Virus record (IMG/VR): IMGVR_UViG_3300037486_000366
Coordinates: 1-61,175 of that record
Source: a virus
Length of the DNA: 61,175 nt
Reading direction: 5' to 3' (one strand)
Positions 16,408 to 53,265 of this stretch are shown piece by piece; position 1 is the stretch's first letter, and the number at the start of each line of letters is the position of its first letter. Below the pieces are notes generated by a model that saw nothing but the letters and a program-made list of their open reading frames with translations, made no database searches and was not told where the DNA came from. Both the position numbers and the translations under genes were made by a program.

Positions 16408-17233
16408 TCCTATTTTTGCTCCAACAGCAAATATTGCTTGGGTAACTTTACTGGAGCATGTTTTAAGTAGTGGGGGGACAACTTCTCCTCGTGGTCTTAA
16501 GTCTCAAGAACTAATAAATATGACTACCTGTTGTGCTATGCATAAACCTATAGTCACTATTAAAGATAGGAAGTTAGGGTATAGGTTTCTATTTGCAGAG
16601 GCATACTGGATTTTATCTGGTGATAATCGTGTGCAGACAATTGCTCCTTATTCAAAACATATTCAGAAATTTTCAGATGATGGGCATACCTTTTTTGGGG
16701 CATATGGGCCCAAGATTGTTGAACAAATACCTTATGTTATTAGCAGTTTAATGCGTGATAAAGATACGAGGCAAGCTGTGTTAACTATATGGCGAGAGAA
16801 TCCACCACAAAGTAAAGACATTCCTTGTACTATATCAGTTCAATGGTTAATCCGAAACAATAACCTTCATTGTATTGATAATATGCGTAGTTCTGACATC
16901 TGGCTTGGTTGGCCTTATGATGTGTTTAATTTTTCAATGATAAGTTCTTATGTTCTTTTAATGCTTAAAGACCATTATCCTACATTGGAATTAGGTAATA
17001 TCAGTATGAACCTTGGGAGTGCTCATTTATACGAAAAGAATTTCAATGATGCTCAGTTATGTATAACTAATTTGAATGATTATAAGTTTCGTTATGGTAT
17101 ACTTGAGCCAAAAAAAGAATTCATTTATCCATCTGATTTATTGTATCATCTTAAGTGTGTTGCTGAGAATAGGCATTCAGAACTTAAATCACAATGGTGT
17201 TGCTGTATTGCAAGAGGCGACCATAATAAATAA
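16394..17233 (+). CDS. Thymidylate-synthase-fold enzyme, probable dCMP hydroxymethylase/methylase
   Basis: This is a ThyA-superfamily enzyme of 279 residues. The catalytic Cys is Cys145 in IPCTISVQW. The pyrimidine-binding segment is NMRSSDIWLGWPYDVF, and GSAHLYEKN closes the active site. At the residue equivalent to Asn177 of E. coli ThyA, which recognises dUMP, this protein has Asp176. In T4 dCMP hydroxymethylase and in engineered dCMP methylases that position is Asp, so a dCMP substrate is predicted. I start at 16394 with GGGAGG upstream; it overlaps the kinase by 14 bp. A true thymidylate synthase remains possible. Confidence 0.75.
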   Translation: MFSTNPIFAPTANIAWVTLLEHVLSSGGTTSPRGLKSQELINMTTCCAMHKPIVTIKDRKLGYRFLFAEAYWILSGDNRVQTIAPYSKHIQKFSDDGHTFFGAYGPKIVEQIPYVISSLMRDKDTRQAVLTIWRENPPQSKDIPCTISVQWLIRNNNLHCIDNMRSSDIWLGWPYDVFNFSMISSYVLLMLKDHYPTLELGNISMNLGSAHLYEKNFNDAQLCITNLNDYKFRYGILEPKKEFIYPSDLLYHLKCVAENRHSELKSQWCCCIARGDHNK

Positions 17234-17247
17234 ACAAGGAGAAAGAT

Positions 17248-17973
17248 ATGTTAAAGCCAAAGGAACTAGACATTGAAGGACTAAAGACACTAATCATTAC
17301 TGAATTAGCTTCTATCGAACGTGTGGGTATTGATAAGTTACTTGTTTATCTTACTAAAGACACAGATTATTTTACAGCTCCATCATCAGCTTCGTTTCAT
17401 TATGCTTTTCCTGGTGGTCTTGCTGCCCATTCATGGAATGTTTTTAATTTACTAACAGCTAAAATAGAAATGTTTAATATCCCTGTTCAGACTGATAGCA
17501 TTTCTATTGTAGCTTTACTTCATGACCTCTGTAAAGTAAACTTTTATGAGGTAGATAATGATCCACCGAGTGATGCTCAAATAAAATATCTACGTGATCT
17601 AGCGAAACGAGAATATTATCAGATTCCCCCTGATCATATGACAAAGGGGTATGTTAGTTCCTTAATAAATTTCTATAAGAATGGAGGAGAGAAACCTGAA
17701 TTCAAAACTACGTATAAGTTTAATGATCAGTTTCCTATGGGACATGGAGAAAAAAGTGTTATCCTTGCACAAAACTATATCCAATTACGTGATGAAGAAG
17801 CCATTGCTATACGTTGGCATATGGTTGCTTTTGACGCTGGTATTCATTTTAATTACCCAAGTGGTTTTCCATTCAGACAAGCTGTTGAAAAATATGCACT
17901 GGTTACTCTCCTCGCCACTGCAGACATGGAAGCTTCTAATATCTTAGAAAGTGAGAGAGAATATAAGGAATAA
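17248..17973 (+). CDS. HD-domain phosphohydrolase (241 aa)
   Basis: Metal-binding HD signatures are spaced as in HD hydrolases: FPGGLAAHSWNV, then LLHDLCK, then MGHGEKSV and IRWHM. The family includes nucleotidases, (d)NTPases and the YhaM-type exoribonucleases, which share GGL-x2-HS. Being in the nucleotide operon, it probably trims or supplies nucleotides, for example by removing an unmodified dNTP. That is an inference. AAGGAGAAAGAT precedes the ATG. The gene ends at the base of a structured non-coding element. Confidence 0.75.
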   Translation: MLKPKELDIEGLKTLIITELASIERVGIDKLLVYLTKDTDYFTAPSSASFHYAFPGGLAAHSWNVFNLLTAKIEMFNIPVQTDSISIVALLHDLCKVNFYEVDNDPPSDAQIKYLRDLAKREYYQIPPDHMTKGYVSSLINFYKNGGEKPEFKTTYKFNDQFPMGHGEKSVILAQNYIQLRDEEAIAIRWHMVAFDAGIHFNYPSGFPFRQAVEKYALVTLLATADMEASNILESEREYKE

Positions 17974-33460: not shown

Positions 33461-33700
33461 TTATATATAAGACAACGTTAAGTAATCAGACCAACGCTGA
33501 TTAAACCTATCATCACCATCAGGATATTTTATAATTAAGCTTGATGTTTCATCGAGACGTTTAATTTGCCAAACATATTCAGAATCAAGTGCTCCTGGTT
33601 TAGCTTTACCAATATATGTAATTGGGGCAACTTCAACCATTCTTAATGTATATTCTTGACTTATTATCCTAACTACTTCATGTCCAGCAAAAATTTCCAT
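33461..33700 (-). CDS. Small hypothetical virion-operon protein (79 aa)
   Basis: A compact strand-rich protein (MEIFAGHEVVRIISQEY, YVWQIKRLDETSSLII). It starts one base inside the end of the 2,884-residue protein and precedes the spike-like gene. No family recognised. It could join internal and tail components. Confidence 0.6.
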   Translation of the reverse strand: MEIFAGHEVVRIISQEYTLRMVEVAPITYIGKAKPGALDSEYVWQIKRLDETSSLIIKYPDGDDRFNQRWSDYLTLSYI

Positions 33701-36700
33701 TATTCAAGTAACCTTACACGTTCTGCTTTATTAGGAACATATAGTGCTTTAGCTTGACGTTTAAGTGATTCTTTAGTAATCACTGGAACTTGTCCACCCA
33801 GATTATATCTTACCACAAGATTATTATATTGTACAACTTTATCCATCGTCTTCTGTAACATTTTAGAATCATTTGACATTAATGAATTACGATACTGCTC
33901 ATAAATGTCATCACGCATTTGAGTAAAGTTTTCCCGTTCCATGAGGGCTTCTGATCGTCTCTCTACCATAGTAGCTTGCTGAGCAGATCTAAATCCTAGA
34001 ACCCGTGCCCCAGTCTCAAATGCACTTGCTTTATAAGGCATTCCTTGATTATTAAATACTGGTGTACCTTTGGTTGTAGTTACACCAGAAAGTTCTCTAT
34101 ATGCCTTAAATAAATTACCAATACCAGTTGGTAAAGTCTTTTCCGCAGCTCTACCATATTCTCCTAACTTAGTATAATGTAAAGCATCGCCCACATCTTT
34201 CACTAGTCCACCACCTACACCAAGTAACTCATACATATTTCGTGGTAGTCCAGCATTAATGTTTAATGATCCAGACACATCTAATCCAAGGGCTCCAATG
34301 AGTCCGTGTCTCAAGATAGTTTCTGATGATTTCCCCATGGATTTACGTGTCTTGTCCCAGAACCATTTTTCAGCATCAACCTTTATTCCTAGCAATCTTA
34401 ACAGGGCATTAAAGATACCTACCCAAATATCTTTAAGTGGGGCTACAGCCATACCTGCTAAGAAAATAGGAGACATTAAACCATATAAGAAGCCTTTAAC
34501 ATTCTTCTTTTTGAAACCAACATCATAAAGCATCTGTAAATAATTATGGGGAAACTTCTGGAATGTATACAGCATCTGAAATAATTTAGCTGCTGGATTT
34601 TTCCCTAACGCATACGAAGGTAATGTTGCCTTACCATACACAGCATGTGCTTTATTAGAAGCATCATATGCTTTTGCTACAGCTTCATCATGAGTAAGGT
34701 CAGGATTATTTTTCTTTGCTAATCTATATGCTGCAAGTATTGTTGAACCTCTAATCCATTGTTCTGATTTCTTAAACCCAAACAAGGCTAAACCAAGGGA
34801 CTGGTTCCAAATACGGCCATGGGTTCTTTGTAACGTGCCCATAGCGTCTTGCATATATTGAGGCATATCATAGCCTTTTTCATGTATCTCATCAACAAGT
34901 TTCTGTTCATTAGCATTAGGTAATTCTTGTCCACGCATAACACCGATGTAGTCTTTACTTGAACGAGTAATTTCTGCTCCAATACTTGCTAAACTACCTT
35001 TACCGCCCATAACATATTGATGAATAGCAGTAGGAACAGTGGTTCCAAGGGCAAGCACATTGACAAATAATGTTCGGGGGTTAAACCCGAGATATTTAAA
35101 AGAAGCTACAGATTTAGCATAACCAATTAATCTATCAGTATTATCTGCATTACGTAATTGTTCTTCAACATATTTAGTAGCTACTTCATAAGCACGTCTT
35201 TCTTTTTGTTCGTCAATTCCACCGACTTTCTTTTTACTACCCTCTTCGTCAGTAACATACTTACCAGTAATTGTGCTGAACATATTTTTAGCTGCTTCAG
35301 CTTTAGCTAGTCCAGCAGAAATATTTCCCACATACCTAACAAACCGTTCGCCTGGATCTACGATATAACCTCGGACTATTTTATCCTTACGTCGACGAAT
35401 CATCGACCCTCTAAATCCTCGAGCTTTAATTATATCTGCAATATTATCAAGCAGTTCATTTTCAAACTTCATCCTTAGTTCAGGAGCTTCAAGTTTAGTT
35501 CCTTTCATTGCTAGATTAATTGCTTGATGTATACTAACAAGGCGTAAGTTACCATAAACATCTTCATGAAGTCGTTCACGTTCTTTTATCGGTTCAATAG
35601 TAAAACCTTGACGGGTAAGTGATGCAGCTAAACGTTCTGCAGCTAACCTATTCGATTTATGATAACGAACTTCTTCTTCTTCACCACGTTTACCTACTAC
35701 TTCCCATTCACCTACTTCACGTAAACGAGGAGCATAGGAACCTTTTAATTGTCCCATTGTGTGAAGAACTTCTTTAAGATTAACAGTAGTTATTTTTCCT
35801 TCTTCATCGTATGTTTGAAACTGAGGATATTGTGGTTTTTTATTTTTTGCTTTAGCTTCATCTTCTACCTCAGTTACTGTTTTAACTAAGGGCTCCATAA
35901 GTAAATCTAAAGCCTTGTCATATGCTACTCTATGTGCCTTATATAACTCAAGTACATCTTGTGGAATATTTTGATTCTCAAGATATTGCAAATATGACAT
36001 ATCAGGATTATCTACTTTCTCTCTCCATTCACCTGTATCACCTTCATCAACTATACGAGAAAATAGCTTATAATCATCTGATGTTTCCCCTCTAACTATT
36101 TGCCACCGTGTAAGACCTTTATTTCTAAGAGCAGTTGTTCGCTGAGAAACAGTCTCATCAGAATTTTCAATTTCATCAAGGGTATGAAATAATTCATAGT
36201 AACGATCATGCCGTTTAATGGCAAGGTCAACAAGTTTACGTAGTACTGGATGACTGTACCATTCAGGAGAACGTAAAAGTCTTTCCATAAATGTCAAGGC
36301 TGGAAGATTTCGTGGACGCTGAGCTGAAATTGTTTTTAATAAAGCTTTCGCCTCTTCTCCCCAGAAGTTTTTAAGAACTGCTGGATCAAGCTCATTGAGA
36401 TTTGGGTCTAGCGTACCTTGCTTAGAAACCTTAGCATACTTAATTGGTTGTTTTGCTTTCTCTACTTGAACATTTTGCTTACGATACATTTCCTGAAATT
36501 CTGTGTTTGAGAAAGATCTCGAAGACCCGTCTGTAAACTCAATAACGAAAGTGTTAGTTGCCTCATTCTTGAAAACTTTATCTACTTTACGTAAACCTAT
36601 GATCTTATCAACACGTAACCTATTAGGTTGGATGAAGCCTTTCTTTTCGTTATATTCTCCAGCTCTAGGATTAGGTATCATTACTTTACCATAATCTTTT

Positions 36701-39700
36701 ACTATATAACCTTTCATCTTTTTAGAAGTAGATTCTAGTTCACGCAAACCTTCTTTAGAAACTCTAGAAAATTTCCCAGGTTTATCATATCTAGCCGCAG
36801 TAAAACGTTTACTAAAGTTACCTGTATAAAATGAAGGGGGTACTTTTTCTCCTTCATTAAGTCTAACTACGTCATCAATATAATTAGCTAAGTTTACCTG
36901 ATCTTCTGAAGATATTGTTGCTTTATCTTTTCCAAGAACTGGGACATTTTCAAGTTTAAATGATGGAACCAGCTCTAATAGTTCTGCTTTATCTGCCTCA
37001 TTACTAAACACATCATCAAAGAATTTTTGTTCAGTTGGCGTAAGATATGTTCTAATTTCCTTTTTAGTTGGCTCTAATTCTTCTAACATAGACTTTATTT
37101 CATTCTTATACAAATTAATTGTTTCTATGTCAGGAATATCTTTACTCTTCTCAACCACAATCTTTTTTTCAAGAAGGTCAATTACACTATTGGTTCTTAA
37201 TAAATGATTTTCTTCTGCAGATCTTTTTCCTGGGATAATGTTTGCTACTCTATCTTTAAAATTATCATAAAGAACCTTATCTTCTTTAGAGATAAAATCT
37301 ATTACATTAGTTTTTTCAGTATAAAGATTTTGTAAATCTTTAAAAGATAAAATTTCTTCCTGCCCATCAATAATAAATTTAAGGTCAGTTACTTTTGTAG
37401 CAGGGTCTATCTTAACTTCATTATCTTGAACCCCTTCACTTTCAATGGCTTTAGTGGGAAAAATGATAGCCACAGAAATTTTATCATTAGCCCCATAAGC
37501 AACTATCGGGGAAATATTACTGATTAATTGTGCAGATATTCCAGGGTAGCCTTCAAAATCTTCCCCAACAAATAACTCATTATTCTCTACAATTGAACGA
37601 AGTTCATCGATCGTAGTTATCCTTGTAGCTGTATTAGGTTTAATTGTTCCTACATAAAGTTTATTTTTTAAATTGTCTTTTAAAGCAATCTTCGTACCAA
37701 CTGATTTTTCTATTGAAATAGGAGTTGCTTTATTAAAAGCTTCCTTAATTTCTTCCATTGTAACTATTACTTTAGGATATGTAACGATTGCCTTACGCCC
37801 TACTAAATTATCGAGAGCTTCAAATTCATGACTAGGTTTTTCTGCAAGAAAACGTTGGCTTCGAGCTAACAAGGCTTTGATGTCACCATCCGTATAAGTT
37901 TTTACTATTCCCCAATCACGAAACTTATTGCGAACAAAGGCTATAATCTTTTCCCATAATGTTTCAGATAATTGATTTTTAGGGTCTTGTGCTTGAAATG
38001 CTAAAAATTCTTCAGCAGCTAATAATTGACCACGATTACCACTAGTGCCTGATGAATCACCTTCAATAGACTCATCTATTTCGTATTCTTTCACAACTGT
38101 CTTCATTAAAGGTGTATCTTTATAACTACTATATATTTGGCGCAAAATAGGTTTAAATTCTTCTACACCTAGCATTTCCCACATGCCATGATGAACTAAT
38201 GCTTCATGTAAAAGAGTGCCAAGTGCTTCATCTAAATCTGCAATCTGATCTGCAAAAAGATGAATAGCAATATACCCATCATTATTTGGCCAATATACTC
38301 CAGGAATAAATTGCGTCTCAAGGTCAGCGTTTAAAAGAATATCAACAGGGACGTCTGGATGATAAATAGAATCATAGATCGTGACTATAGGTAAACCTGG
38401 ATGTTCTTCAACAAACTTGTCAATATGGGTCGCAATATCTTTTGCTTTTAAGTTCCCTGCTTTTTCATGTGTTCTTGGTTGTTTGACCTTAGCAAATTTT
38501 TTAGGAATAGCAGTTAATTTATCTTTTTGAAGAATTTCAATATTATTTTCATCAAAATCTATTCCTGTACCATGTTTACCAACTTTAGCTGCCTTAACTC
38601 CAACAAGAGTAGTTGCTACCTTATTAAAGTAATCTATTAAACCATCAATTTGTCGATCAAACTGACTCTTTTCTTCTGAAGTTGCAAAATGAGTGTTTAA
38701 TAAGCCATCATCAAATGATGCTGATAATTGGCCTAGGTAATCAGACAAATGAACCAGGTTGACTTTACTTTCGTCACCAAGATGCCATCGATTATTAATC
38801 ATAGTAGACAATGCGTTTAATAAAGAGGGTAAATCTCCCGTTGTCTTGGGGACTAACGTATTTGTCTTTTTATTAAGGGTTAATACTCGAGTTGAAAGGT
38901 CTTTGTTTTCTTGAGCCGTTTGAAACAAGGGATTTAAGGCTATAAGCTTATGCTTCTTTGCAACAGGTTTCTCTTTTGCAATCTCAGCACGAAGAGCCAT
39001 TTCTTCACGTTTCTCTTCTTCAATTCTATCATCAACCATTTCCTGAATTTCTTTTTCACTTAATTCAGAAAAGTCAGTAGAGAACATATCATATAAATCA
39101 GCTCGACGTTCTTTTTCTTCTTGTTCAGTCATTAAAGGAACTTCAAGCGGGGCAATTTCTTCTTCAGGTTCTTCGACTTTTTCTTCTGTTATTTTTGCCA
39201 TTGCACGTTGATCTGCTGCTTCCTCACGTTCCTCTTCAGTCATCGTGCCTTTTTCTTTCCAAGTACCTTCAGTAGTCTGTTTCCATTGTTTAACAAGGGT
39301 TTTATGCTCAGCAACTTCTTCAGTTGGAACAGCTTCACCTTGCTGTAGTCTTGCTAGAACGTTACGATAACGGGCTTTCTTTTTTAGTGTCTTCTTTACT
39401 TCTGGTAAAGTTTTAATAGAAGGTTCACCTACATAAACATAAGATAAAGTAACCCCACCTTTAATATCTTTTTCAATTTGAGATATATTAGAAAAATCAG
39501 GTTTATTTTTTTCACCAACAAACTCAAATGTATGTTGTGAATATGTTTTATTTTTTAAGACACTTGAAATAGCTTCAGGTAAAGTGTTATAGGTTTCTTG
39601 CCTAATTAACTCTTGATTAGGTTCTATACTTTCTTGTTTATGTTCAACTATATACTTTCCATCCTCCTCTGAAATATCTGCATAAGCTTTATCAAAGGTA

Positions 39701-42354
39701 GTAGAACGTTCAGAAAAATCACTTGCATTGACAAGTTGAGTTTTAAGGTTTTTAATCTCAGTCATTACTTCTGGTAAAGTTTTGCCAGTCTCTGTGGTAC
39801 TAGTACCTGTATCGACTTTACCTTGCTCGATAACCCCTGTAACCACTGCTCCAGTGACTGGCTTGGGAGGACGTCCAGGTTTTCGCTTAGGTCCTGGTTC
39901 AACTGCAGGTCTTTCTTTCTTAGGTCTTCCAACCTTTTTCTTAATCGCTTCTTCAAGGATTGCATCTCCTTTCGCTTCAACCTTTGTGCCATTTTCAAGT
40001 TCAACTTTTACAGTAACATCTTTTAAATCTTCTTTTGCTATTCTATCAAGAATACGTTTAGAAGAAACTATATCTGAAGCAATAATTATTGTGGACGTTT
40101 TTTCTTGAGCTTGCTTAGCTTTTCTTTTAAGCTCTCCTTTTTTGGTTGCTCGTTTTTCTTCTTTAGAAAGGGGTGTTTCGCGTTGTTCTTGAACATTTCC
40201 ACTTGCTGTAATCTTTCCTTCGCCTGTTCCTGTGACAGGTCCGGTTTTGACAGGTTTTTCCCCTTGCTGGACTTTACTTGATAGCCTTGCGATGTTTGTA
40301 CGATCACTTGTAATCTCCTTTCGTTTCGCAATCCACTGTTCCTTGCCTTCTTCTGTATGACCTATTTTTGTAGGTTCATACATATTAAAAATACCAGGCA
40401 TCTTCTGCTCAAGTTTACGTAAAGTAAGTAAAACACTCCCTTTTGAAGTAAAAGCATTTCCCTTAGCTGTCCTAATTTCCGCAGGCACTTCACCAGTAGC
40501 AGTTGGGGTAATTTTCTTTAGCCGTTGTGTTTCTAATCCTCGCTGAATAAGATCAGAAAAAACTTTAGGAACAGCAATCCAGGCTTTAGTATTTAATCTG
40601 AAAGGTACTAGTTCTTTTTCTTTATTAGCTTCTTTTATTGCTTTCTTTGTAACTGCTTCTGAAACAAAGGGTATTTCTTCTCCAGCTTTGTTTTGACTTG
40701 TTAATGATACTTTACGAATTAATTCTGGTAAAGACATTAACGTTCCAATATTCTTTTCATGAGTAAAAGAGTCGGGAGTATGCGCTTCAGAAATAGGCCG
40801 CATGACTGGGTTGCCCTGCTCATCTACGATATGAGAAGATTGAACCATCATAGGAGAAGGAACAATAGGTCCCCGCGCCCCCATAATGGTCTGAGCTAAT
40901 TGAGTCGCACGATTTTCATCAAAACCACGTTTAATGAAATCATCTTTGAAAAAATTAAACAGTTCATACCCAATAATTCGTCTACCAGTTTTTTCATTTT
41001 CTGGGTGAAGTTCTTCTTGCTGAGTAACTTCTTTTGGTGTTTCAATTCCACGTTCCTCAAACTTTTTGACATCTTCAGAAAGTTGTTGTTCAAGGAAACG
41101 TTCCTTAGTCATCTCTTGAAATGTTCTTAATGACTCAAGGTTCTTGTTTAACTCCATTGGTTCTTGATTAACTATCTTATATGCCGCATACTCTTGCCAT
41201 TTAGAAGCAAGATCAGTATCATTAGTTCCATCTAGTTTCTTAAGTTCATTAAAGACTATTTCTGCAGCACGATGTCTATCAGATACATCAGCCTCAGCAT
41301 CTTCTAAAACCTTTGTTACTTGCCCCCGCATCTTTGCCCCACGACCATGACCTACTCCAGCAAATAATAGTGAGGCAAAAAATGTAGGACCTATTGCTTG
41401 TAAAGCCTGTTCTTCAGGAGAAGTCTCTTGAGGTAAACCTGCTTCTTCACGAAACCTTCCTTCAAGATAGCTCTGAGCCATTTCAGTTGGAATTTCAACA
41501 GCTGATAATTTTCCGACTGTAGCCGCATAATCTTTTACACCAGCCGTAGTTCCACGTTCAAGTAACTGTTTAACTGTTTTTGTTGCTGCACGACCGACAC
41601 CTAACCTATCAAGAAACGACCCAATAACAAGGTCACCTGTAAATTCAAGGCCAGCTTCCTGAATAGCAGAAGCAGCTGCCCATGGTTTCCATTCATTATC
41701 TGTTATTGCAAATTGAGGATTTTTCTGATTAAACTTATAGACGTCTTCTGCGAATTGATCATATTCTTGAAGACCAAATGCAATACCACCACCAAGTGCT
41801 CCGGTAGCAATACCTCCTACTCGTCTACCTAATTCAGCTGCTTGTGGAGTTTTACCTATTGCCATACCTAGTGCAGCACCTAACGCTTGACCTGGTTCTG
41901 AGGCAATCAGAATAGGCATAATAGACTGCACAAAACTACGAGAACCCTCAAATACAGAGGTACGAAAAACATTTCCTGCTGACCATGGATCACCTGTTAA
42001 TGTTGGTTGTTTAAAAACACTTGGGAGAGCATTTTCTATCTCTGGTTTTTTCTCAATAAACCAAGTAGCAACAACATCTTTCAGTCCCTGATCTTCATCT
42101 TTAACATTACCGAGACGAATATCGCGTGCTAACATTTCAATTGAACTCAATAAACCAGCAGCAAGACCAGCTGGTAAATCACCGATGACCCCCATCCAAC
42201 TGCTTCGTACAGGAGTAGGTGGTTCTGGTGGATTTATGCTAGCAAGATCTTGTTGTACTTCAGTTAAGCCTTGGTAAATATTTGTAGGTTCAGCACCAGG
42301 AGTACCTACAGAACCAGCCATGTCACGAGCAAATTGTTCAAGGTCAAACGCCAT
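33700..42354 (-). CDS. Giant polyvalent virion/ejection protein with metallopeptidase-like domain (2,884 aa)
   Basis: By far the largest gene. The first about 330 residues have glycine/alanine-rich, membrane-prone segments (LPAGLAAGLLSSIEML; LGAALGMAIGKTPQAAELG). Lys/Pro/Glu-rich linkers follow at about 730-860 and 1080-1180. Around residue 1383, LLHEALVHHGMWEML is an HExxH-like zinc motif following IPGVYWPNNDGYIAIHLFAD, as in metallopeptidase domains of polyvalent proteins. The last 900 residues are helical and include YTFQKFPHNYLQMLYD near 2,595, typical of DNA-ejection or polyvalent proteins. It is probably packaged in the capsid and injected with DNA to build a channel or process host targets. 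No RNA polymerase motifs were seen. Confidence 0.8.
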   Translation of the reverse strand: MAFDLEQFARDMAGSVGTPGAEPTNIYQGLTEVQQDLASINPPEPPTPVRSSWMGVIGDLPAGLAAGLLSSIEMLARDIRLGNVKDEDQGLKDVVATWFIEKKPEIENALPSVFKQPTLTGDPWSAGNVFRTSVFEGSRSFVQSIMPILIASEPGQALGAALGMAIGKTPQAAELGRRVGGIATGALGGGIAFGLQEYDQFAEDVYKFNQKNPQFAITDNEWKPWAAASAIQEAGLEFTGDLVIGSFLDRLGVGRAATKTVKQLLERGTTAGVKDYAATVGKLSAVEIPTEMAQSYLEGRFREEAGLPQETSPEEQALQAIGPTFFASLLFAGVGHGRGAKMRGQVTKVLEDAEADVSDRHRAAEIVFNELKKLDGTNDTDLASKWQEYAAYKIVNQEPMELNKNLESLRTFQEMTKERFLEQQLSEDVKKFEERGIETPKEVTQQEELHPENEKTGRRIIGYELFNFFKDDFIKRGFDENRATQLAQTIMGARGPIVPSPMMVQSSHIVDEQGNPVMRPISEAHTPDSFTHEKNIGTLMSLPELIRKVSLTSQNKAGEEIPFVSEAVTKKAIKEANKEKELVPFRLNTKAWIAVPKVFSDLIQRGLETQRLKKITPTATGEVPAEIRTAKGNAFTSKGSVLLTLRKLEQKMPGIFNMYEPTKIGHTEEGKEQWIAKRKEITSDRTNIARLSSKVQQGEKPVKTGPVTGTGEGKITASGNVQEQRETPLSKEEKRATKKGELKRKAKQAQEKTSTIIIASDIVSSKRILDRIAKEDLKDVTVKVELENGTKVEAKGDAILEEAIKKKVGRPKKERPAVEPGPKRKPGRPPKPVTGAVVTGVIEQGKVDTGTSTTETGKTLPEVMTEIKNLKTQLVNASDFSERSTTFDKAYADISEEDGKYIVEHKQESIEPNQELIRQETYNTLPEAISSVLKNKTYSQHTFEFVGEKNKPDFSNISQIEKDIKGGVTLSYVYVGEPSIKTLPEVKKTLKKKARYRNVLARLQQGEAVPTEEVAEHKTLVKQWKQTTEGTWKEKGTMTEEEREEAADQRAMAKITEEKVEEPEEEIAPLEVPLMTEQEEKERRADLYDMFSTDFSELSEKEIQEMVDDRIEEEKREEMALRAEIAKEKPVAKKHKLIALNPLFQTAQENKDLSTRVLTLNKKTNTLVPKTTGDLPSLLNALSTMINNRWHLGDESKVNLVHLSDYLGQLSASFDDGLLNTHFATSEEKSQFDRQIDGLIDYFNKVATTLVGVKAAKVGKHGTGIDFDENNIEILQKDKLTAIPKKFAKVKQPRTHEKAGNLKAKDIATHIDKFVEEHPGLPIVTIYDSIYHPDVPVDILLNADLETQFIPGVYWPNNDGYIAIHLFADQIADLDEALGTLLHEALVHHGMWEMLGVEEFKPILRQIYSSYKDTPLMKTVVKEYEIDESIEGDSSGTSGNRGQLLAAEEFLAFQAQDPKNQLSETLWEKIIAFVRNKFRDWGIVKTYTDGDIKALLARSQRFLAEKPSHEFEALDNLVGRKAIVTYPKVIVTMEEIKEAFNKATPISIEKSVGTKIALKDNLKNKLYVGTIKPNTATRITTIDELRSIVENNELFVGEDFEGYPGISAQLISNISPIVAYGANDKISVAIIFPTKAIESEGVQDNEVKIDPATKVTDLKFIIDGQEEILSFKDLQNLYTEKTNVIDFISKEDKVLYDNFKDRVANIIPGKRSAEENHLLRTNSVIDLLEKKIVVEKSKDIPDIETINLYKNEIKSMLEELEPTKKEIRTYLTPTEQKFFDDVFSNEADKAELLELVPSFKLENVPVLGKDKATISSEDQVNLANYIDDVVRLNEGEKVPPSFYTGNFSKRFTAARYDKPGKFSRVSKEGLRELESTSKKMKGYIVKDYGKVMIPNPRAGEYNEKKGFIQPNRLRVDKIIGLRKVDKVFKNEATNTFVIEFTDGSSRSFSNTEFQEMYRKQNVQVEKAKQPIKYAKVSKQGTLDPNLNELDPAVLKNFWGEEAKALLKTISAQRPRNLPALTFMERLLRSPEWYSHPVLRKLVDLAIKRHDRYYELFHTLDEIENSDETVSQRTTALRNKGLTRWQIVRGETSDDYKLFSRIVDEGDTGEWREKVDNPDMSYLQYLENQNIPQDVLELYKAHRVAYDKALDLLMEPLVKTVTEVEDEAKAKNKKPQYPQFQTYDEEGKITTVNLKEVLHTMGQLKGSYAPRLREVGEWEVVGKRGEEEEVRYHKSNRLAAERLAASLTRQGFTIEPIKERERLHEDVYGNLRLVSIHQAINLAMKGTKLEAPELRMKFENELLDNIADIIKARGFRGSMIRRRKDKIVRGYIVDPGERFVRYVGNISAGLAKAEAAKNMFSTITGKYVTDEEGSKKKVGGIDEQKERRAYEVATKYVEEQLRNADNTDRLIGYAKSVASFKYLGFNPRTLFVNVLALGTTVPTAIHQYVMGGKGSLASIGAEITRSSKDYIGVMRGQELPNANEQKLVDEIHEKGYDMPQYMQDAMGTLQRTHGRIWNQSLGLALFGFKKSEQWIRGSTILAAYRLAKKNNPDLTHDEAVAKAYDASNKAHAVYGKATLPSYALGKNPAAKLFQMLYTFQKFPHNYLQMLYDVGFKKKNVKGFLYGLMSPIFLAGMAVAPLKDIWVGIFNALLRLLGIKVDAEKWFWDKTRKSMGKSSETILRHGLIGALGLDVSGSLNINAGLPRNMYELLGVGGGLVKDVGDALHYTKLGEYGRAAEKTLPTGIGNLFKAYRELSGVTTTKGTPVFNNQGMPYKASAFETGARVLGFRSAQQATMVERRSEALMERENFTQMRDDIYEQYRNSLMSNDSKMLQKTMDKVVQYNNLVVRYNLGGQVPVITKESLKRQAKALYVPNKAERVRLLE

Positions 42355-46710: not shown

Positions 46711-47412
46711 TTACGCAAAAATATCAGTTCCAATAAATGGTTTATCAAAACCTGACAATATACAGGCATGATTTGCAAAGTCTAATGCAACATTTAAATT
46801 TAATACAGGAACTTTATAAGCTTCATTATTAGTACAACATTGTCTATATCGTAAAAAATGAAGAGCAATTTTATCTTCATCTTCAGAAGTAAGTTCATCT
46901 TTATATTGCATTGACCTAAACATTATATGTATCTTACCAAATGACTTCGGGCTATGACAAAATCTTGCCTTCACATCAAGATTAGGGTAATACTGAGAAA
47001 GATAAGTATTAATATACTGTATATCTAATGGGCAAAACCAACAACGCATTTCATATGGCAATTCATTATCAATACAAATTTGTGCTGCTTTTAAACAGGG
47101 CACACTCCCTTTAAGTGCTTTTGCTGGTTCGGTAAACTCTGCCCCTAACTTCCCATCATAGAAATATCCTTCAAGATATTGTTTCCAATTAATATTCCAC
47201 CCAGTTAATAAAGCAAATCCTGGCCAATCATACATATAAGCAGTTTTATTAGCAATCATCCAAGTAAGACAATCAAGATGAGACTGTTTAACGTCACTCA
47301 TAGTTATACTCTGGACTATATTAACTGGATATGCCCACATTGCTCGTCCTAAAAGATATTGTTTAAGCACTGATAATTGTACAGTATCTGTTATTGTATA
47401 TGTCCAATTCAT
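46711..47412 (-). CDS. Unknown protein of the radical-SAM cassette (233 aa)
   Basis: No domain recognised. It is rich in Trp/Tyr/Cys (TYMYDWPGFALLTGWNINW is close to its pattern; RCWFCPLD at about 123; RYRQCCTNNEAY near 195). A WFC cluster could bind metal. It overlaps the glycosyltransferase gene by ATGA, so it belongs to the coupled string 51663-46711. It may be a modifying enzyme, a partner or a structural subunit. A GT-A or acyltransferase-like enzyme cannot be excluded. Confidence 0.6.
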   Translation of the reverse strand: MNWTYTITDTVQLSVLKQYLLGRAMWAYPVNIVQSITMSDVKQSHLDCLTWMIANKTAYMYDWPGFALLTGWNINWKQYLEGYFYDGKLGAEFTEPAKALKGSVPCLKAAQICIDNELPYEMRCWFCPLDIQYINTYLSQYYPNLDVKARFCHSPKSFGKIHIMFRSMQYKDELTSEDEDKIALHFLRYRQCCTNNEAYKVPVLNLNVALDFANHACILSGFDKPFIGTDIFA

Positions 47413-48398
47413 AATAATGCTATAAACTCCTGTTTAAATTGTTCATAGTTAAATCTTTCTTTACCTGCCAATGCTATTATATGGGCTTCTTTTTCAAAAC
47501 TGGAAAGATCAGCATTTTTTATTTCCAAAAGATTTGCTATCATAGTATCAACATCATTTGTTTCATAATGAAGACCATCACACCAATTTACCCAATTTCC
47601 ATCAAACGTTCCAGAGTTCCTATCATTTACAATTAATGGAATTGTCCCAGTAAAAATAGCTTGCATAATAGTTGCATTAAAAGGTTCATACCCATCATGT
47701 GGTAAAATAAAGAATTTATAGTTATTAAGTTCTTTAGGCACCTCTGACTGTTTAATAAAGCTATTTAACTTTAAATTACCTGAGGATTGTGCACTAAACA
47801 ATAGATCATAGTAATCATTTTTAGATATAGGAAAAGACCAAGTCCAAGAAGGTTCTTCAGCATTCCACATTTTCCCAAAACACTCAATAAACAAGTCAGT
47901 TTGTTTTATCTTCTGAATAAACTCAACAGAAAATTTATGAGGAAGAACATGCCCAAAATAACAGAATAAGTTACGTTTGTTCCATGGAATCACGTAAGAA
48001 AAAATATCTGCTGTTGGGTAAAAACGATTCAATATTTTTGAATCATACAGAGTAGTAACAGCAGCAGGTTTCTTATTCAATATAACTATATATTCTGCCT
48101 TATTAAATAGTGGAACATACTCAGGTAAAAATAATTCTTTCCAAACATGTGCAATAACAATTAAACGTGTTGATGGATTATCAGTAATATAATTAAGAAT
48201 ATGTGTTATGACATTCGGGTAAAGCTCATTTAAAATAATTAAATCAGGAGTAAGTAAACTAAATGCATCATAGTAATTAATTCCTTGTTGCTTTATTACT
48301 GATATATCTGGATTTGCTTCTTTTACCCATTCACCAATAATTGAACCATAGTATTCAATGGCTGAACCAACATTAAGATTTACAAATACTATTTTCAT
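47409..48398 (-). CDS. Glycosyltransferase, GT-B-like (329 aa)
   Basis: Two Rossmann halves are apparent: KIVFVNLNVGSAIEYYG with LIVIAHVWKELFLPEY in the first, and NLFCYFGHVLPHKFSVEFI with YKFFILPHDGYEPFNATIM and QAIFTGTIPLIVND in the second. The latter is the nucleotide-sugar-binding E-x-F-x6-A-x3-G-x-IP pattern of GT4-type enzymes. Being coupled to radical-SAM genes and near Thr/Ser-rich repeat proteins, it may glycosylate those Thr/Ser. That is an inference. DNA or host glycans are alternatives. Confidence 0.75.
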   Translation of the reverse strand: MKIVFVNLNVGSAIEYYGSIIGEWVKEANPDISVIKQQGINYYDAFSLLTPDLIILNELYPNVITHILNYITDNPSTRLIVIAHVWKELFLPEYVPLFNKAEYIVILNKKPAAVTTLYDSKILNRFYPTADIFSYVIPWNKRNLFCYFGHVLPHKFSVEFIQKIKQTDLFIECFGKMWNAEEPSWTWSFPISKNDYYDLLFSAQSSGNLKLNSFIKQSEVPKELNNYKFFILPHDGYEPFNATIMQAIFTGTIPLIVNDRNSGTFDGNWVNWCDGLHYETNDVDTMIANLLEIKNADLSSFEKEAHIIALAGKERFNYEQFKQEFIALL

Positions 48399-48874
48399 TC
48401 TTTACTCCTTAAGGAATCGAGATACATCTTTGTAAACTCAATTGTTGGAAGCATATAAATCTTTTCTAATGCTTCTATTCTATGAAACAGTCTTTTTGTC
48501 ATATAAAACAAATCTTCAAGTGAATGTCTCATTCGATAGATTGCCTCAACTCGGTTTATTGCGTCACTAATATATTTATCTTTAACGGAACTTTCATTCC
48601 AGCTTTTAATTAAAAAGCAATATTTTTCAATAAACATGGCAAATTCCTTGGTTATTGGAACCTCAAAAAACACCCCAAAAAATGTATCTAACCACTTTGA
48701 AACCATAGGAATTTGTTCTTGTGCTAACTTATCTTCCCCATCAACTAATTTAATACATGAAGTAGCAACATTATTAATCTGTGCTCTGATCTCATCAAGG
48801 TGAGGACCTTTAAATGGAGATAATTCTACTTCTTTTAAGAGCTCTAAACTAAGTTTTTCAATTTGATCTTTCAT
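48395..48874 (-). CDS. Helical protein of the radical-SAM cassette (159 aa)
   Basis: All-helical in appearance (KLSLELLKEVELSPFKG, INRVEAIYRMRHSLEDL, KRLFHRIEALEKIYML). No known family. It overlaps both neighbours by ATGA and lies between the SPASM protein and glycosyltransferase. It could be a precursor-binding or chaperone-like partner; an RRE-type (PqqD-like) fold is not apparent. Confidence 0.6.
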   Translation of the reverse strand: MKDQIEKLSLELLKEVELSPFKGPHLDEIRAQINNVATSCIKLVDGEDKLAQEQIPMVSKWLDTFFGVFFEVPITKEFAMFIEKYCFLIKSWNESSVKDKYISDAINRVEAIYRMRHSLEDLFYMTKRLFHRIEALEKIYMLPTIEFTKMYLDSLRSKE

Positions 48875-50043
48875 AAAGTATTCCTTAATGAGTCTATTAT
48901 TTCATGTTTATGGTGAATAAGTTGACACACAGAAGGAATTGGGGTAAACATATCCCCAGTTGATTCATACTGTGCCCCTAAACATTGCCCCATACACTTA
49001 TCTTTTATTCCACACATATTACAATATGGTTGATTCTTAAAATCACAATAATGAGTTGCTACATACAGAGTAAAATTCTTTTCATTTGTCCCAACAATCT
49101 TATTCTCTTCCACTTTCATATCAAATAATTCAAACTCTTTATACATTAACCTATGACAGGGAAAACTTTTTAAATCACCCAAACGAATATGATAATGAGG
49201 TTGAAGAGCACATGCCAAACCTTTATTTGTTTTAGCATAAATATTAGTTAAAATATTAAAACCTTTATGTTGGGCGAATAAATCATTAACATTTCCTTTG
49301 CTTGCTAAATACCCCATAAGATAAGTAATAAATTTTCCATATTGTTTTATTTGTTCTTCTGACCATTCTGCATTACGTACTTCTAATAAGTATAGAAAGA
49401 ACCATGGAAAATCATATAATTTAAGCATATCTTGGAACCAATTAAAGTTATCAATCCATCGTTCTATACCATTAGAATACACCATTGGGTGAAAACCAAC
49501 ATCTCCAGTTTTCTTAACAAATTCAAAGGCTGTATTATACCAGTATTGATCCCTATGACCATAAATACATGGGCGATTTTCATCATCCATGAACGGTCCA
49601 TCAAAAGAAGCGCTATTAAACAATATTGCTCCTTTATCTTTAAACTTTTTCTTATATGAAAATATCTTGTCCTCATTACCAGTAAAAATAAAATTAAAGT
49701 TTGTGGGAACAACACAACGCAACCCTGACCAGGCATAAGAAAGAATTAAATCAAGTAATTCAAACCCTATTTGTTGTGAGTAAAGTTCTCCTGAAAATAT
49801 CTCAAGATTAGGTTTCCAATTATTTTTTTTCAACCACTCAAATACTAATACTGCATTAGAAATAATTTTTTCTTCATCTTGTGTTCCTGAAGGAAATAAC
49901 TTATCTCTATGTCTATGAATATAACAGTAAGTGCACATATTATCACATTTACCATTAACAATAAGTTCAAGGGTAAAAAACGAATTTTCTTTCTCCCAAG
50001 CTTTATAGAATGTACGCGATAATAAATTATCAAGTAAAGTCAT
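48871..50043 (-). CDS. Radical SAM protein with SPASM domain (390 aa)
   Basis: The [4Fe-4S]-SAM motif CDNMCTYC is near residue 33. LEIFSGELYSQQ is the GGE-equivalent region, and FNSASFDGPF fits the next strand. The C-terminus has a full SPASM-like cysteine set: ACALQPHYHIRLGDLKSFPC, then YCNMCGIKDKCMGQC and a final Cys in PSVCQL (spacing C-x2-C-x5-C-x3-C). SPASM enzymes commonly modify ribosomal peptides or activate enzymes. It overlaps the other radical-SAM gene by 14 bp, so both are made together. Confidence 0.88.
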   Translation of the reverse strand: MTLLDNLLSRTFYKAWEKENSFFTLELIVNGKCDNMCTYCYIHRHRDKLFPSGTQDEEKIISNAVLVFEWLKKNNWKPNLEIFSGELYSQQIGFELLDLILSYAWSGLRCVVPTNFNFIFTGNEDKIFSYKKKFKDKGAILFNSASFDGPFMDDENRPCIYGHRDQYWYNTAFEFVKKTGDVGFHPMVYSNGIERWIDNFNWFQDMLKLYDFPWFFLYLLEVRNAEWSEEQIKQYGKFITYLMGYLASKGNVNDLFAQHKGFNILTNIYAKTNKGLACALQPHYHIRLGDLKSFPCHRLMYKEFELFDMKVEENKIVGTNEKNFTLYVATHYCDFKNQPYCNMCGIKDKCMGQCLGAQYESTGDMFTPIPSVCQLIHHKHEIIDSLRNTL

Positions 50044-51214
50044 TCATAACCTCAGCAATATATTTATCATATTCAGCATAACAAAAAAGTTGAATAAGGT
50101 TCAAATCAACTAAGTTGATAGATCCCATATTTATCAATTCAGCTTTACATGCTCCAGTAACCATGACCAATAATAAAGACATAAATGATCGACGTTGTGG
50201 ATCATTATAAACATCACTTATTTTATTTGCTAATAACAACTCAATCATTAACATATTAACTAATGCAAGACGAAAAGCATAATAACGATGAAAACCATTA
50301 ATAAGATATAAAAACCGTGAACTATCTTCCACAAATGAATATTCTTTCCTAAACTTTTGTTGTGGAAATAAGAAATATTGACACAGTGTTTTTTCCTTTA
50401 CTGTTGTAGCAATTGCAGATCTTCCAGCTGAACACTGGGCTCCATAATGATATGAAGAAAAATCAGACAAATTTAATATAGTATTTATAAACAAGGGCTC
50501 CATGGGATAAACTACATATGGAACAGTCTTTCTTAACTGCTTCATATGCTCAATAACTATTTTAAATGCTTGTATTTGCTCATCAGTATAGTTTCCAGGA
50601 TAACACGGTCCAGGAGCAAGACAAACATAATTATCTCTATATCCTGCTTTAATTAAAATATCAGTAACATTTTTCATATAACTATAGTATTCATATATCA
50701 TCTGAACGTTTTTAGCAAGATAAGTATAATGTTCTGGCCCCCATGTAACTTTATATCTCATAGTTAAATTTTTATACGTATGTTCTGTTACAAAATCAAG
50801 CAGCCCTTGTAATCCAGCATGTATTTGCTCATGTTTCTTTCTTCCTATTTTTGTGAGTTCTGGAGGGCCATCTATTGAAAACTGAACATCTAATTTAAAA
50901 TTATAAAGCTCTACTTTTTTAATAAATCTTTTTACTGGGGCAATATCTATAAGGTTTGTTGAGAACATAATCTTTTTTAAGTTTTTAAAACGATTAACAA
51001 TATAATCAAGATCATCAATTAAATAATCAAGATTAATAGTAGGTTCTCCTCCCCATAAACTTAGGTCTTCAATCTCTAATGGGACATTTTCCCATATTTT
51101 TCTACTTTTAATGCTATGTATAACTTCATCATTATTCATAGTTTTATCTAATAAACAATATGAACAATCGAGTTGACATTTAGATGATAATAATATTTGT
51201 GACCCTATAAACAT
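50030..51214 (-). CDS. Radical SAM protein (394 aa), likely peptide maturase
   Basis: CQLDCSYC near residue 13 is the radical-SAM cluster motif. LSLWGGEPTINLD has the GGEP that binds SAM, and QFSIDGPPELTK matches the following strand. C-terminal cysteines (QCSAGRSAIATTVKEKTLC) suggest a second, SPASM/twitch-type cluster, less complete than in its partner. It starts 2 bp after the repeat-protein gene, the usual distance for a precursor-maturase pair. Substrate inferred, not shown. Confidence 0.88.
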   Translation of the reverse strand: MFIGSQILLSSKCQLDCSYCLLDKTMNNDEVIHSIKSRKIWENVPLEIEDLSLWGGEPTINLDYLIDDLDYIVNRFKNLKKIMFSTNLIDIAPVKRFIKKVELYNFKLDVQFSIDGPPELTKIGRKKHEQIHAGLQGLLDFVTEHTYKNLTMRYKVTWGPEHYTYLAKNVQMIYEYYSYMKNVTDILIKAGYRDNYVCLAPGPCYPGNYTDEQIQAFKIVIEHMKQLRKTVPYVVYPMEPLFINTILNLSDFSSYHYGAQCSAGRSAIATTVKEKTLCQYFLFPQQKFRKEYSFVEDSSRFLYLINGFHRYYAFRLALVNMLMIELLLANKISDVYNDPQRRSFMSLLLVMVTGACKAELINMGSINLVDLNLIQLFCYAEYDKYIAEVMNDFT

Positions 51215-51216
51215 AA

Positions 51217-51663
51217 TTAAGAAATACCTGCATTATTATAAGTACCATTATAACCGGTATTATGTGTACTATAATGTGTTGTATAATGTGTAGCCCTATA
51301 AGTAGTAAGATTAGAAGATAAATGCGTAGTATAATGAGTAGCACAATAACTTGCATTATGTGTTGCTAAGTAAGTAACAAGATTAGAGGCTAAATGTGTT
51401 GCTAAATAAGTTGCATAATAAGTATGACAGTAATTATTAGTATGAGCTTCATCAAGGGCAGTTCGTAATTGAAGATAATCCATTGTACCTGTACCAGAAT
51501 CCTGTCTTGTAGGATCATATTGTGCTGGTGTTCTACTCCATGAATAGGCTCCTAAACCTGTTAATGAACGTAAAGTATCTATATTCGTCTGTAGTTCAGT
51601 AACATGAGAGGCTTTAGGTTTTGTTACATATTGTGTAAGTGCTTCAGCCCATGAAAAAGACAT
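51217..51663 (-). CDS. Tetrapeptide-repeat protein B (148 aa), candidate radical-SAM substrate
   Basis: Residues 1-75 form a leader-like helical region starting MSFSWAEALTQYV. From residue 78 to 142 there are 17 consecutive tetrads in which every fourth residue is His, Tyr or Asn. It is preceded by Thr or Ser in 15 of 17 (for example LATHLASNLVTYLATH). The end is NNAGIS. A GAGGAGAAAAACAAA leader supports the ATG at 51663 over a longer frame. It is followed after 2 bp by the radical-SAM genes. It may be a tail appendage, a metal-binding rod, or a precursor. Confidence 0.8.
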   Translation of the reverse strand: MSFSWAEALTQYVTKPKASHVTELQTNIDTLRSLTGLGAYSWSRTPAQYDPTRQDSGTGTMDYLQLRTALDEAHTNNYCHTYYATYLATHLASNLVTYLATHNASYCATHYTTHLSSNLTTYRATHYTTHYSTHNTGYNGTYNNAGIS

Positions 51664-51692: not shown

Positions 51693-52040
51693 CTACCCGC
51701 CAATTGCCCCACCGCAATCACCAGAAAGAAAACCATTCCAATGAGTCCCATAGTGAGCTCCTCTATTAGTAGCATAATGGGGGACTAAATTAGTAACAAG
51801 ATAGGTACCACAATAACTTGCATCATGAGTAGCTAAATAAGTAGTAAGATTAGAAGATAAGTGTGTAGTATAATGAGTGGGGCAATAACTTGCATTATAT
51901 GCAGTTAAATGAGTGGTATGGTGAGTTGCACAATAAGCAAGATTATTATGAAGCCAATCAGAATTATCTCGTATTTCTTGAACATCTACACGTTCATCGT
52001 TTAATCTTTGTGCAATAGTTTGTGCCCATGTAAAAGCCAT
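51693..52040 (-). CDS. Tetrapeptide-repeat protein A (115 aa), paralogue of B
   Basis: It has the same plan as protein B: a short helical N-terminus starting MAFTWAQTIAQRL, then 17 tetrads from residue 36 to 100 with His/Tyr/Asn in every fourth place (YCATHHTTHLTAYNAS). The end is Gly-rich (FLSGDCGGAIGG). Three Cys follow Tyr in the tetrads (positions 37, 53, 77). It starts 1 bp after the fibre gene. Its equal repeat number with protein B suggests a shared structure or partnership. Confidence 0.8.
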   Translation of the reverse strand: MAFTWAQTIAQRLNDERVDVQEIRDNSDWLHNNLAYCATHHTTHLTAYNASYCPTHYTTHLSSNLTTYLATHDASYCGTYLVTNLVPHYATNRGAHYGTHWNGFLSGDCGGAIGG

Positions 52041-52041
52041 C

Positions 52042-53265
52042 TTATTTCACCTTTACCCAATGTCGTTTTCGTACTTCTATACCATTCCAGATAGGGTTCA
52101 ATTCTTCCCTCAAAAAAGTAGCTATAATTCTTTCCGGGTAATTTTTACAAGATACTCTTGTCATTCTCGTAAGTTTACCATTTTTATCACTAGTTAAAGG
52201 TGTACCAGGAACATACACTCTATCAACACAGGCAAGAACATACCCAGCCACAGAAATAGGAATACTGTTCTTCTTAACCCCAACCCCGAAACCATAAGTA
52301 TCAGAAGCAATTCCAATTATTCCTACTTGACAGTATTGAGTTGATAAGGTAACTTCCCTGCCTTTCATTACGTATACTCTACCAAATTCAATTTTAAGTT
52401 TATGCTCTAACTCCAAGAAGTCAGCAATATCATTATAAACTGCATTATATATTTTTCCTGAAGAAAGTCTTCCATGTGTATCTGGAGTTTCTGATGGGGC
52501 TGATGCATCAGAATGCCAAATAATAGCGAGGTTTTGAGCACTTGCATTTTGAAAATAAAACTGTGCTGCTGCACCATCAGCTGCAGTATTTTTAAATGTT
52601 ATAGTAGTGCCACAAACTATGGTTGCACTATTTGCTGTAATTGTGCCCCCAGTACTAACTAAAGTAAGTCCAGAAATTGTACCAGAAGCAGCAGTAATAT
52701 TACCAGAACTTGTTAATGTAGCCCCAGATATTGTACCAGAAGAAGCAGTAATGTTGCCAGTACTAATAAGAGTAGCCCCAGAGATTGTACCAGCCGCTGC
52801 AGTAATATTACCAGTACTAACAAGAGTACCTGCAGAAATTGTACCAGAAGCAGCAGTAATATTGCCAGAGGCTGTTAGAGTAGTAACATCAAGTCTTTGT
52901 GCGCTACCCCACCAAGCTTGTTCTCTTGGAAGATTCGTAACTGTTGCGGTACCTGCACCTCCAAACACTTGATATGGTCCTGCTTCTACAGTACCATTAA
53001 TTGTCAGGGTTTTAAGAGCAGTAACAGTTAAAAGACAACCTTTAGGAAGTTTTAATGTTACATTTGCTGGAATAGTTAAATTATCAGTCACAGTCCATGT
53101 GCCTGGACGAAGAAGCAAAGTAACTGTATCACCACCAATTGCTGCTAATGCAGTATTTAATGTTGCTAAAGTAAAATTATTACTTGTCCCATATCTTACT
53201 AAAGCATCTACTTCATTAAGAACATGAAGACCACCAATTAAAGTTCCAGCAAGTAATTGTGCCAT
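52042..53265 (-). CDS. Tail fibre with beta-repeats and chaperone/peptidase_G2-like C-terminus (407 aa)
   Basis: The start reads like a right-handed beta-helix cap (GDTVTLLLRPGTWTVTDNL, ANVTLKLPKGCLL). Then come about five repeats of roughly 17 residues (SGNITAASGTISGATL...). The C-terminal 150 residues (VYNDIADFLELEHKL, YCQVGIIGIASDTYGFGVG, VAGYVLACVDRVYVPGTPL) resemble the intramolecular-chaperone/Peptidase_G2 domain that trims and trimerises tail proteins. It is probably a side fibre, and it directly precedes the tetrapeptide-repeat genes. Confidence 0.75.
   Translation of the reverse strand: MAQLLAGTLIGGLHVLNEVDALVRYGTSNNFTLATLNTALAAIGGDTVTLLLRPGTWTVTDNLTIPANVTLKLPKGCLLTVTALKTLTINGTVEAGPYQVFGGAGTATVTNLPREQAWWGSAQRLDVTTLTASGNITAASGTISAGTLVSTGNITAAAGTISGATLISTGNITASSGTISGATLTSSGNITAASGTISGLTLVSTGGTITANSATIVCGTTITFKNTAADGAAAQFYFQNASAQNLAIIWHSDASAPSETPDTHGRLSSGKIYNAVYNDIADFLELEHKLKIEFGRVYVMKGREVTLSTQYCQVGIIGIASDTYGFGVGVKKNSIPISVAGYVLACVDRVYVPGTPLTSDKNGKLTRMTRVSCKNYPERIIATFLREELNPIWNGIEVRKRHWVKVK

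What the first reader, a model, noticed from the sequence alone, without database searches (positions are those of the whole stretch)
47409..48398. Glycosyltransferase coupled to radical-SAM genes in a late operon
A GT-B fold enzyme with the EPF-x6-A...G-x-IP donor-site pattern sits inside the cassette, not in the DNA-modification region. The Thr/Ser before each His/Tyr/Asn in the repeats would make a dense O-glycosylation target, though phage-DNA or host-surface targets remain possible.
Basis: inference. Interest (0 to 1): 0.6.

Follow-up and report, generated by a model that had tools for sequence, protein, structure and literature searches.

The report
Glycosyltransferase in phage repeat-protein modification cassette
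A virus of bacteria carries, beside its tail-fibre gene, a compact set of genes that probably makes short-repeat proteins and then decorates them with two radical enzymes and a sugar-adding enzyme, and the same set in the same order turned up in one otherwise different virus.

Summary
The gene is real: 329 aa, minus strand, 47409-48398, with the stated EPF-x6-A...G-x-IP pattern. No curated family claims it. A two-sequence AlphaFold model (mean pLDDT only 52) matches GT-B glycosyltransferases along its whole length (best E 3.6e-5); a single-sequence model does not.

The main result is comparative. A repeat-pattern scan of viral contigs found a siphovirus-like record, G042, with the same five genes in the same order: tetrad-repeat protein, radical SAM 1, radical SAM/SPASM 2, a small protein, and this glycosyltransferase (36% identity). 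A related fibre C-terminus lies upstream in both. In the window these genes overlap or nearly abut, and the block is the lowest-GC stretch of its length. The nearest large relative, G003, lacks the cassette.

A DNA-modification role fits less well: G003 has the thymidylate-synthase-type gene without this glycosyltransferase; G042 has the glycosyltransferase without that gene.

So the coupling is supported. Glycosylation of the repeat proteins, probably on tetrad Thr/Ser, is the best inference but unproven; "each" His/Tyr/Asn is overstated. The evidence rests on two phages and no wet data. A new variant of a known kind.

The parts
47409..48398 (-). Glycosyltransferase, 329 aa, GT-B-like; motif EPFN-x4-Q...GTIPL
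   Evidence: 36% identity to L317:6084-7118 over 348 alignment columns; Foldseek matches to GT-B enzymes
48395..48874 (-). Small protein, 159 aa, function unknown; weakly related protein in the same place in G042
   Evidence: 27% over 86 columns, E 9e-8 in a single pairwise comparison
48871..50043 (-). Radical SAM 2 with SPASM-type cysteines, 390 aa
   Evidence: 38% identity to L317:4242-5585; ten invariant cysteines in the pair, including C33, C37, C40 and C341, C344, C350, C354; PapB model E 1.1e-8 and SPASM 24.1 bits, both under cut-off
50030..51214 (-). Radical SAM 1, 394 aa
   Evidence: Fer4_12 over cut-off E 6.2e-7; phrog_1802 E 4.5e-17; 23% identity to L317:2813-4228, E 4e-21
51217..51663 (-). 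Tetrad-repeat protein 2, 148 aa from the ATG at 51663 (listed from TTG at 51717)
   Evidence: period 4, none of 10,000 shuffles as high; AGGAG before the ATG
51693..52040 (-). Tetrad-repeat protein 1, 115 aa
   Evidence: period 4, none of 10,000 shuffles as high
52042..53265 (-). Fibre-like protein, 407 aa; C-terminal part shared with the G042 fibre
   Evidence: 40.8% identity, residues 242-407, E 1.5e-38

Best explanation
The protein is a divergent GT-B-type glycosyltransferase and the last core enzyme of a transferable phage cassette: tetrad-repeat protein(s), radical SAM 1, radical SAM/SPASM 2, a small partner protein, and the glycosyltransferase. Most likely the repeat proteins are made late and sit on or near the tail fibre. 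The two radical SAM enzymes modify side chains in the tetrads, and the glycosyltransferase adds a host-supplied nucleotide sugar, most plausibly to the tetrad Thr/Ser. The result would be a chemically altered, sugar-bearing receptor-contact or shielding surface. Shown here: gene, motif, cassette, conserved order in a second phage, low GC of the block, absence from the tested relatives. Inferred: fold (low-confidence model), sugar donor, acceptor, order of steps, place in the virion, biological role.
For: Same five-gene order with homologues in siphovirus-like G042. Fibre C-terminal domain shared and close by. Overlapping genes. Block GC 0.311, lower than all 452 same-length windows that do not overlap it, of which the lowest is 0.337. 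G003 has homologues of the tail 1014-aa and 211-aa proteins on one side and of the 148-, 547- and 463-aa proteins on the other, but not the cassette; over the 41 records tested, 0 of 41 match the glycosyltransferase and 0 of 41 have Radical_SAM over cut-off. GT-B enzymes fill ranks 1-16 of the PDB search with the two-sequence model and most of the top VIA-align rows. The thymidylate-synthase-type gene does not track with the glycosyltransferase. Precedent: pelagimyophage host-recognition regions hold tail fibres, glycosyltransferases and radical SAM cassettes (PMC7029224, passages seen).
Against: Only two phages carry the cassette in my data. The model is poor (mean pLDDT 51.7, pTM 0.43) and TM-scores are about 0.3. 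The single-sequence model gives no GT-B hit and nothing at E 0.001. A profile of the pair finds no glycosyltransferase chain in the PDB by sequence. Nothing ties the sugar directly to the repeat proteins, and the tetrad Thr/Ser may be structural. The phage also has genes that look like a modified-nucleotide pathway.
Confidence: 0.52

Rival explanations
1. It glucosylates hydroxymethylated phage DNA, like T4 alpha- or beta-glucosyltransferase, protecting the genome from host nucleases.
For: The window has a thymidylate-synthase-family gene with Asp in its GWPYD segment (that Asp there marks the dCMP-hydroxymethylase type is recalled), plus a kinase-like gene and an HD gene. T4 AGT structures are among the matches (Z 9.7), and the best BFVD match is named DNA alpha-glucosyltransferase.
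Against: G042 has the glycosyltransferase and no PF00303 match; G003 has the synthase, a kinase-like and an HD-like ORF without this glycosyltransferase. The gene lies in the late fibre block, not with the nucleotide genes. A shared fold does not show an acceptor. Caveat: G042 may be incomplete.
Confidence: 0.13
2. It modifies the host cell surface (LPS or capsule) during infection to block superinfection or free the progeny from receptor, and merely travels with the fibre block.
For: PMC7029224 (passages) proposes O-chain modification for the glycosyltransferases of pelagimyophage host-recognition regions. Fibre-linked position in both phages.
Against: The tight overlap with radical SAM and small-protein genes and the conserved order in two phages point to a shared substrate. 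No flippase, polymerase or membrane partner was noted among the cassette genes.
Confidence: 0.17
3. The cassette makes and decorates a released RiPP-like product (toxin, signal or inhibitor) rather than a virion part.
For: Two radical SAM enzymes whose best, sub-threshold, matches are RiPP maturases, beside short repeat proteins.
Against: No dedicated peptidase or exporter is conserved: the gene after the glycosyltransferase differs between the phages. In G042 one tract is fused to a LamG domain of a 594-aa protein, which suits a virion part.
Confidence: 0.1

Closest known systems
Virion glycosylation of mycobacteriophages (Che8, Rita; Freeman et al. 2023, seen only as cited in PMC11256854)
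   Same: Phage-encoded glycosyltransferases thought to put sugar on virion proteins
   Different: That those systems lack radical SAM and tetrad-repeat genes is recalled, not tested; this enzyme has no tblastn match at E 0.1 in the phages collection
Pelagimyophage host-recognition regions (PMC7029224, passages)
   Same: Tail fibres, glycosyltransferases and radical SAM cassettes in one variable region
   Different: Large T4-like genomes, mostly GT8 glycosyltransferases, host O-chain proposed as target; no tetrad-repeat protein mentioned in the passages seen
Radical SAM/SPASM RiPP maturases with repeat precursors (PapB, TvgAB of PMC9062424, passages)
   Same: SPASM radical SAM enzyme next to a short-repeat substrate
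   Different: NCBIfam scores far under the cut-offs; substrate beside a phage fibre; a glycosyltransferase in the set
Bacterial serine-rich repeat O-glycosyltransferases (GtfA/B, GtfC)
   Same: GT-B fold enzymes among the structural matches (GtfA/B 5e9t, GtfC 9hua); that they glycosylate Ser/Thr of repeat proteins is recalled
   Different: About 12% identity; no sequence relation; not phage

Membership tests
GT-B fold glycosyltransferases | Two Rossmann-like domains facing a cleft | tested here: inconclusive
   Foldseek ranks 1-16 are GT-B enzymes, best E 3.6e-5, but model pLDDT 51.7 and TM about 0.3; single-sequence model gives none
GT-B fold glycosyltransferases | Curated family score | tested here: not met
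   Best is Exostosin_GT47, 14.6 of 33.4 bits; the G042 homologue has no glycosyltransferase match in Pfam
GT4-type retaining glycosyltransferases | E-x7-E in the donor site (motif recalled) | tested here: not met
   E-x7-Q in 2 of 2 sequences
Phage DNA glucosyltransferase (T4 AGT/BGT kind) | Genome also makes a hydroxymethylated base | tested here: inconclusive
   Synthase-type gene in the window, absent from G042, present in G003, which lacks this glycosyltransferase
Phage DNA glucosyltransferase (T4 AGT/BGT kind) | Sugar transfer to DNA | not testable with these tools
   needs an enzyme assay
Radical SAM/SPASM peptide-modifying enzymes (radical SAM 2) | CxxxCxxC plus SPASM-type CxxC-x5-C-x3-C | tested here: met
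   C33, C37, C40 and C341, C344, C350, C354 invariant in both homologues
Radical SAM/SPASM peptide-modifying enzymes (radical SAM 2) | NCBIfam SPASM domain score (TIGR04085) | tested here: not met
   24.1 bits in both homologues against a cut-off of 27: close, but under
His-Xaa-Ser (Hxs) system | HxsB/HxsC equivalog scores | tested here: not met
   HxsB 22.4 of 370 bits, HxsC 19 of 267.9 bits
Virion protein glycosylation system | Sugar on a virion protein | not testable with these tools
   metagenomic virus record; needs virions or expressed protein and glycoproteomics

The most novel reading that the evidence does not exclude
A mobile phage cassette installs two layers of modification, radical SAM chemistry and glycosylation, on the same period-4 x-small-[TS]-[HYND] repeat of fibre-associated proteins, making a 'glyco-RiPP-like' virion surface that passes between phages of different morphotype along with the fibre tip.
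Probability: 0.38. Interest if true: 0.8.

Novelty: new variant of a known kind. Interest (0 to 1): 0.57.

Why it matters
If true, phages carry RiPP-like maturation pathways not to make free peptides but to build chemically altered, glycosylated parts of the virion. That would add a route to receptor-surface diversity that the genome sequence alone does not show, and would give enzymologists a compact five-gene system with a simple four-residue substrate repeat. It also makes an orphan glycosyltransferase family testable against a defined substrate.

Tried and rejected
Homologue searches that gave nothing: glycosyltransferase in viral contigs by single sequence; single-sequence viral scans for radical SAM 1 and 2; phages tblastn for the window's glycosyltransferase, radical SAM 1, repeat protein 2 and fibre C-terminus, and for the G042 glycosyltransferase, radical SAM 1, repeat protein and second glycosyltransferase, and for the L264 repeat. 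Genome-contig scans with the radical SAM 2 and glycosyltransferase alignments found no relative. G042 radical SAM 2 reached only Campylobacter phages at about 24% identity (15 of 15 records); the annotated neighbourhood of one, CP220, shows other radical SAM and sugar genes but not this cassette.

Repeat-pattern scans: one search gave 8 loci, all judged chance on translation. One search also stopped at 120 rows. In one search I re-scanned all 323 loci then held and printed only ORFs of 70 aa or more; I read three loci in full, of which L317 carried the cassette, L264 a possibly similar repeat cut off at a contig end, and L232 nothing relevant. As both scans stopped at their limit, more cassettes may exist.

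Scan with the glycosyltransferase pair: 244 stretches matched a pattern, 1 encoded a relative, the same record as L317. Profiles of four core proteins over all 328 loci then held found no third cassette.

N-glycosylation sequons (N-x-S/T) are not enriched: 2, 3, 4 and 4 in the four repeat proteins, with shuffle fractions of 0.14 or more. The glycosyltransferase pair against the GT4-type glycosyltransferase of G042: hhalign probability 0.2. PF00534 and PF00535 gave no match in G000, G003 or G042 (0 of 3 each), although G042 holds a PF13439 match. PDB profile hits of radical SAM 2 to a ribosomal protein and of the glycosyltransferase pair to an RNA polymerase subunit were set aside as chance. 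Promoter-like sites in the block show no excess (33 against 39.5 in shuffles).

Against my reading: His/Tyr/Asn lag-4 periodicity is not significant in the LamG-linked tract of G042 (5 against 4.4, fraction 0.46), where position 4 is often Asp, although its Thr/Ser periodicity is.

Full report
What is there. The ORF at 47409-48398 on the minus strand is open, starts with ATG and codes for 329 aa. It sits in a co-directional run: fibre-like 407 aa, repeat protein 1, repeat protein 2, radical SAM 1, radical SAM 2, 159 aa, this gene, 233 aa, holin. The genes from radical SAM 1 to the 233-aa ORF overlap by 14, 4, 4 and 4 bases. Repeat protein 2 most likely starts at the ATG at 51663, with AGGAG upstream, rather than at the TTG at 51717. 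The window is a virus record of 61175 bases; its capsid relatives include Pseudoalteromonas phage vB_Pun_Y3 at 42%, and it has an SU10-type portal match.

Is it a glycosyltransferase? No curated family accepts it: Pfam offers only Exostosin_GT47 far under its cut-off, PHROGs and NCBIfam nothing. A sequence search of the PDB gives only glycogen synthase at E about 0.7, aligned at residues 204-303. The second Glu of the GT4 E-x7-E motif (recalled) is Gln in both. AlphaFold on one sequence was poor (pLDDT 40.5), and a search with that model gave receiver-like and other Rossmann folds, none at E 0.001. With two sequences the model rose to 51.7, and the PDB search then put GT-B enzymes at ranks 1-16: SenB, LpxB, GtfA/B. 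VIA-align gives SenB Z 11.7 over 244 residues at a large rmsd of 14.5, and T4 AGT 9.7; the viral library gives mostly glycosyltransferases among its best rows. I take the fold as likely, not shown.

The second phage. After chance and low-complexity scans, a pattern built on the tetrads found L317, part of a 40,612-base viral contig (G042). Downstream of a fibre whose C-terminus matches the window's fibre at 41% lie a LamG protein ending in tetrads, a 134-aa tetrad protein, radical SAM 1 (23% identity, E 4e-21), radical SAM 2 (38%), a 174-aa protein (27% over 86 columns) and the glycosyltransferase (36%), in that order. G042 has tape-measure-type and gpJ-type proteins, so it is siphovirus-like, and the window's capsid protein finds no match in it. 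The 233-aa gene is not conserved; an M15-like peptidase takes its place. The core is therefore repeat protein(s), two radical SAM enzymes, a small protein and the glycosyltransferase.

The cassette looks acquired. Its GC is 0.311, below every one of 452 equally long windows that do not overlap it (lowest 0.337). Among 41 records of capsid relatives, 0 of 41 match the glycosyltransferase (the same tool does find it in the window's own record) and 0 of 41 have Radical_SAM over cut-off, one giving a weak 12-bit hit. I gave these of the 80 loci, mainly the longer ones; several are short fragments. G003, the most informative at 58 kb, has homologues of window proteins on both sides of the site and fibre-like ORFs between them, but no cassette.

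What does it act on? Three lines favour the repeat proteins or their virion neighbours. First, conserved order with the repeat and radical SAM genes in two phages. Second, position 3 of the tetrads is Thr or Ser in 42 of 48 while position 4 varies among His, Tyr, Asn and Asp (the tetrads were selected by a pattern allowing T, S, G or A at position 3 and H, Y, N or D at position 4, so the figure is descriptive). Third, poor fit with DNA modification: the thymidylate-synthase-type gene is in the window and G003 but not in G042, while the glycosyltransferase is in the window and G042 but not in G003. That is a comparison of three records and could be upset by incomplete contigs. The DNA alternative stays open because the window does carry a synthase with Asp in its GWPYD segment, a P-loop kinase-like gene and an HD gene.

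Mechanism. Radical SAM 2 keeps the CxxxCxxC and SPASM-type cysteines in both phages, and such enzymes mostly modify peptides (established knowledge), though its SPASM score is just under the curated cut-off. Both radical SAM proteins score best, under cut-off, against peptide-maturase models. All four repeat proteins begin M-[ASG]-[FY]-x-W; I read this as a docking or attachment segment, which is inference. I propose that radical SAM chemistry and glycosylation both fall on the tetrads of a late virion protein. What chemistry the radical SAM enzymes do, which sugar is used, and which step comes first are unknown.

Relation to the known. Phage virion glycosylation has precedent: PMC11256854 (passages) says that phages Che8 and Rita carry glycans on capsid proteins, citing Freeman et al. 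2023, which I did not read. Radical SAM cassettes with glycosyltransferases and tail fibres in pelagimyophage host-recognition regions are described in PMC7029224 (passages). Repeat precursors of radical SAM enzymes are described in PMC9062424 (passages). My searches of the paper library listed no paper that, by title and start of abstract, describes this five-gene cassette; the library lacks most subscription papers. I rate it a new variant of a known kind.

Noticed in passing
window 15406-17973 (+): P-loop kinase-like gene, thymidylate-synthase-family gene with Asp in GWPYD, and HD gene in a row; a kinase-like ORF, a GWPYD synthase and an HD-like ORF also occur together in G003 (L328). Possible modified-cytosine nucleotide pathway.
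   Followed up: partly
L326:150-1235: A second glycosyltransferase (Glyco_transf_4, over cut-off) at the head of the tail genes of G042; no homologue in the phages collection.
   Followed up: partly
L317:614-2395: A LamG-domain protein that ends in the same tetrad repeat, so the repeat tract can be fused to a lectin-type domain.
   Followed up: partly
L264:2-664: 221-aa ORF rich in [HYN][ST] repeats, cut at the contig start; the next ORF (1209 aa) looks like a portal interrupted by an intein (by eye). Upstream genes unknown.
   Followed up: partly
window 33700-42354 (-): A 2884-aa protein in the late region; G003 has a 2376-aa ORF in the same relative place.
   Followed up: no
window 46711-47412 (-): 233-aa ORF, translationally overlapped with the glycosyltransferase, no family match and no counterpart in G042.
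   Followed up: partly
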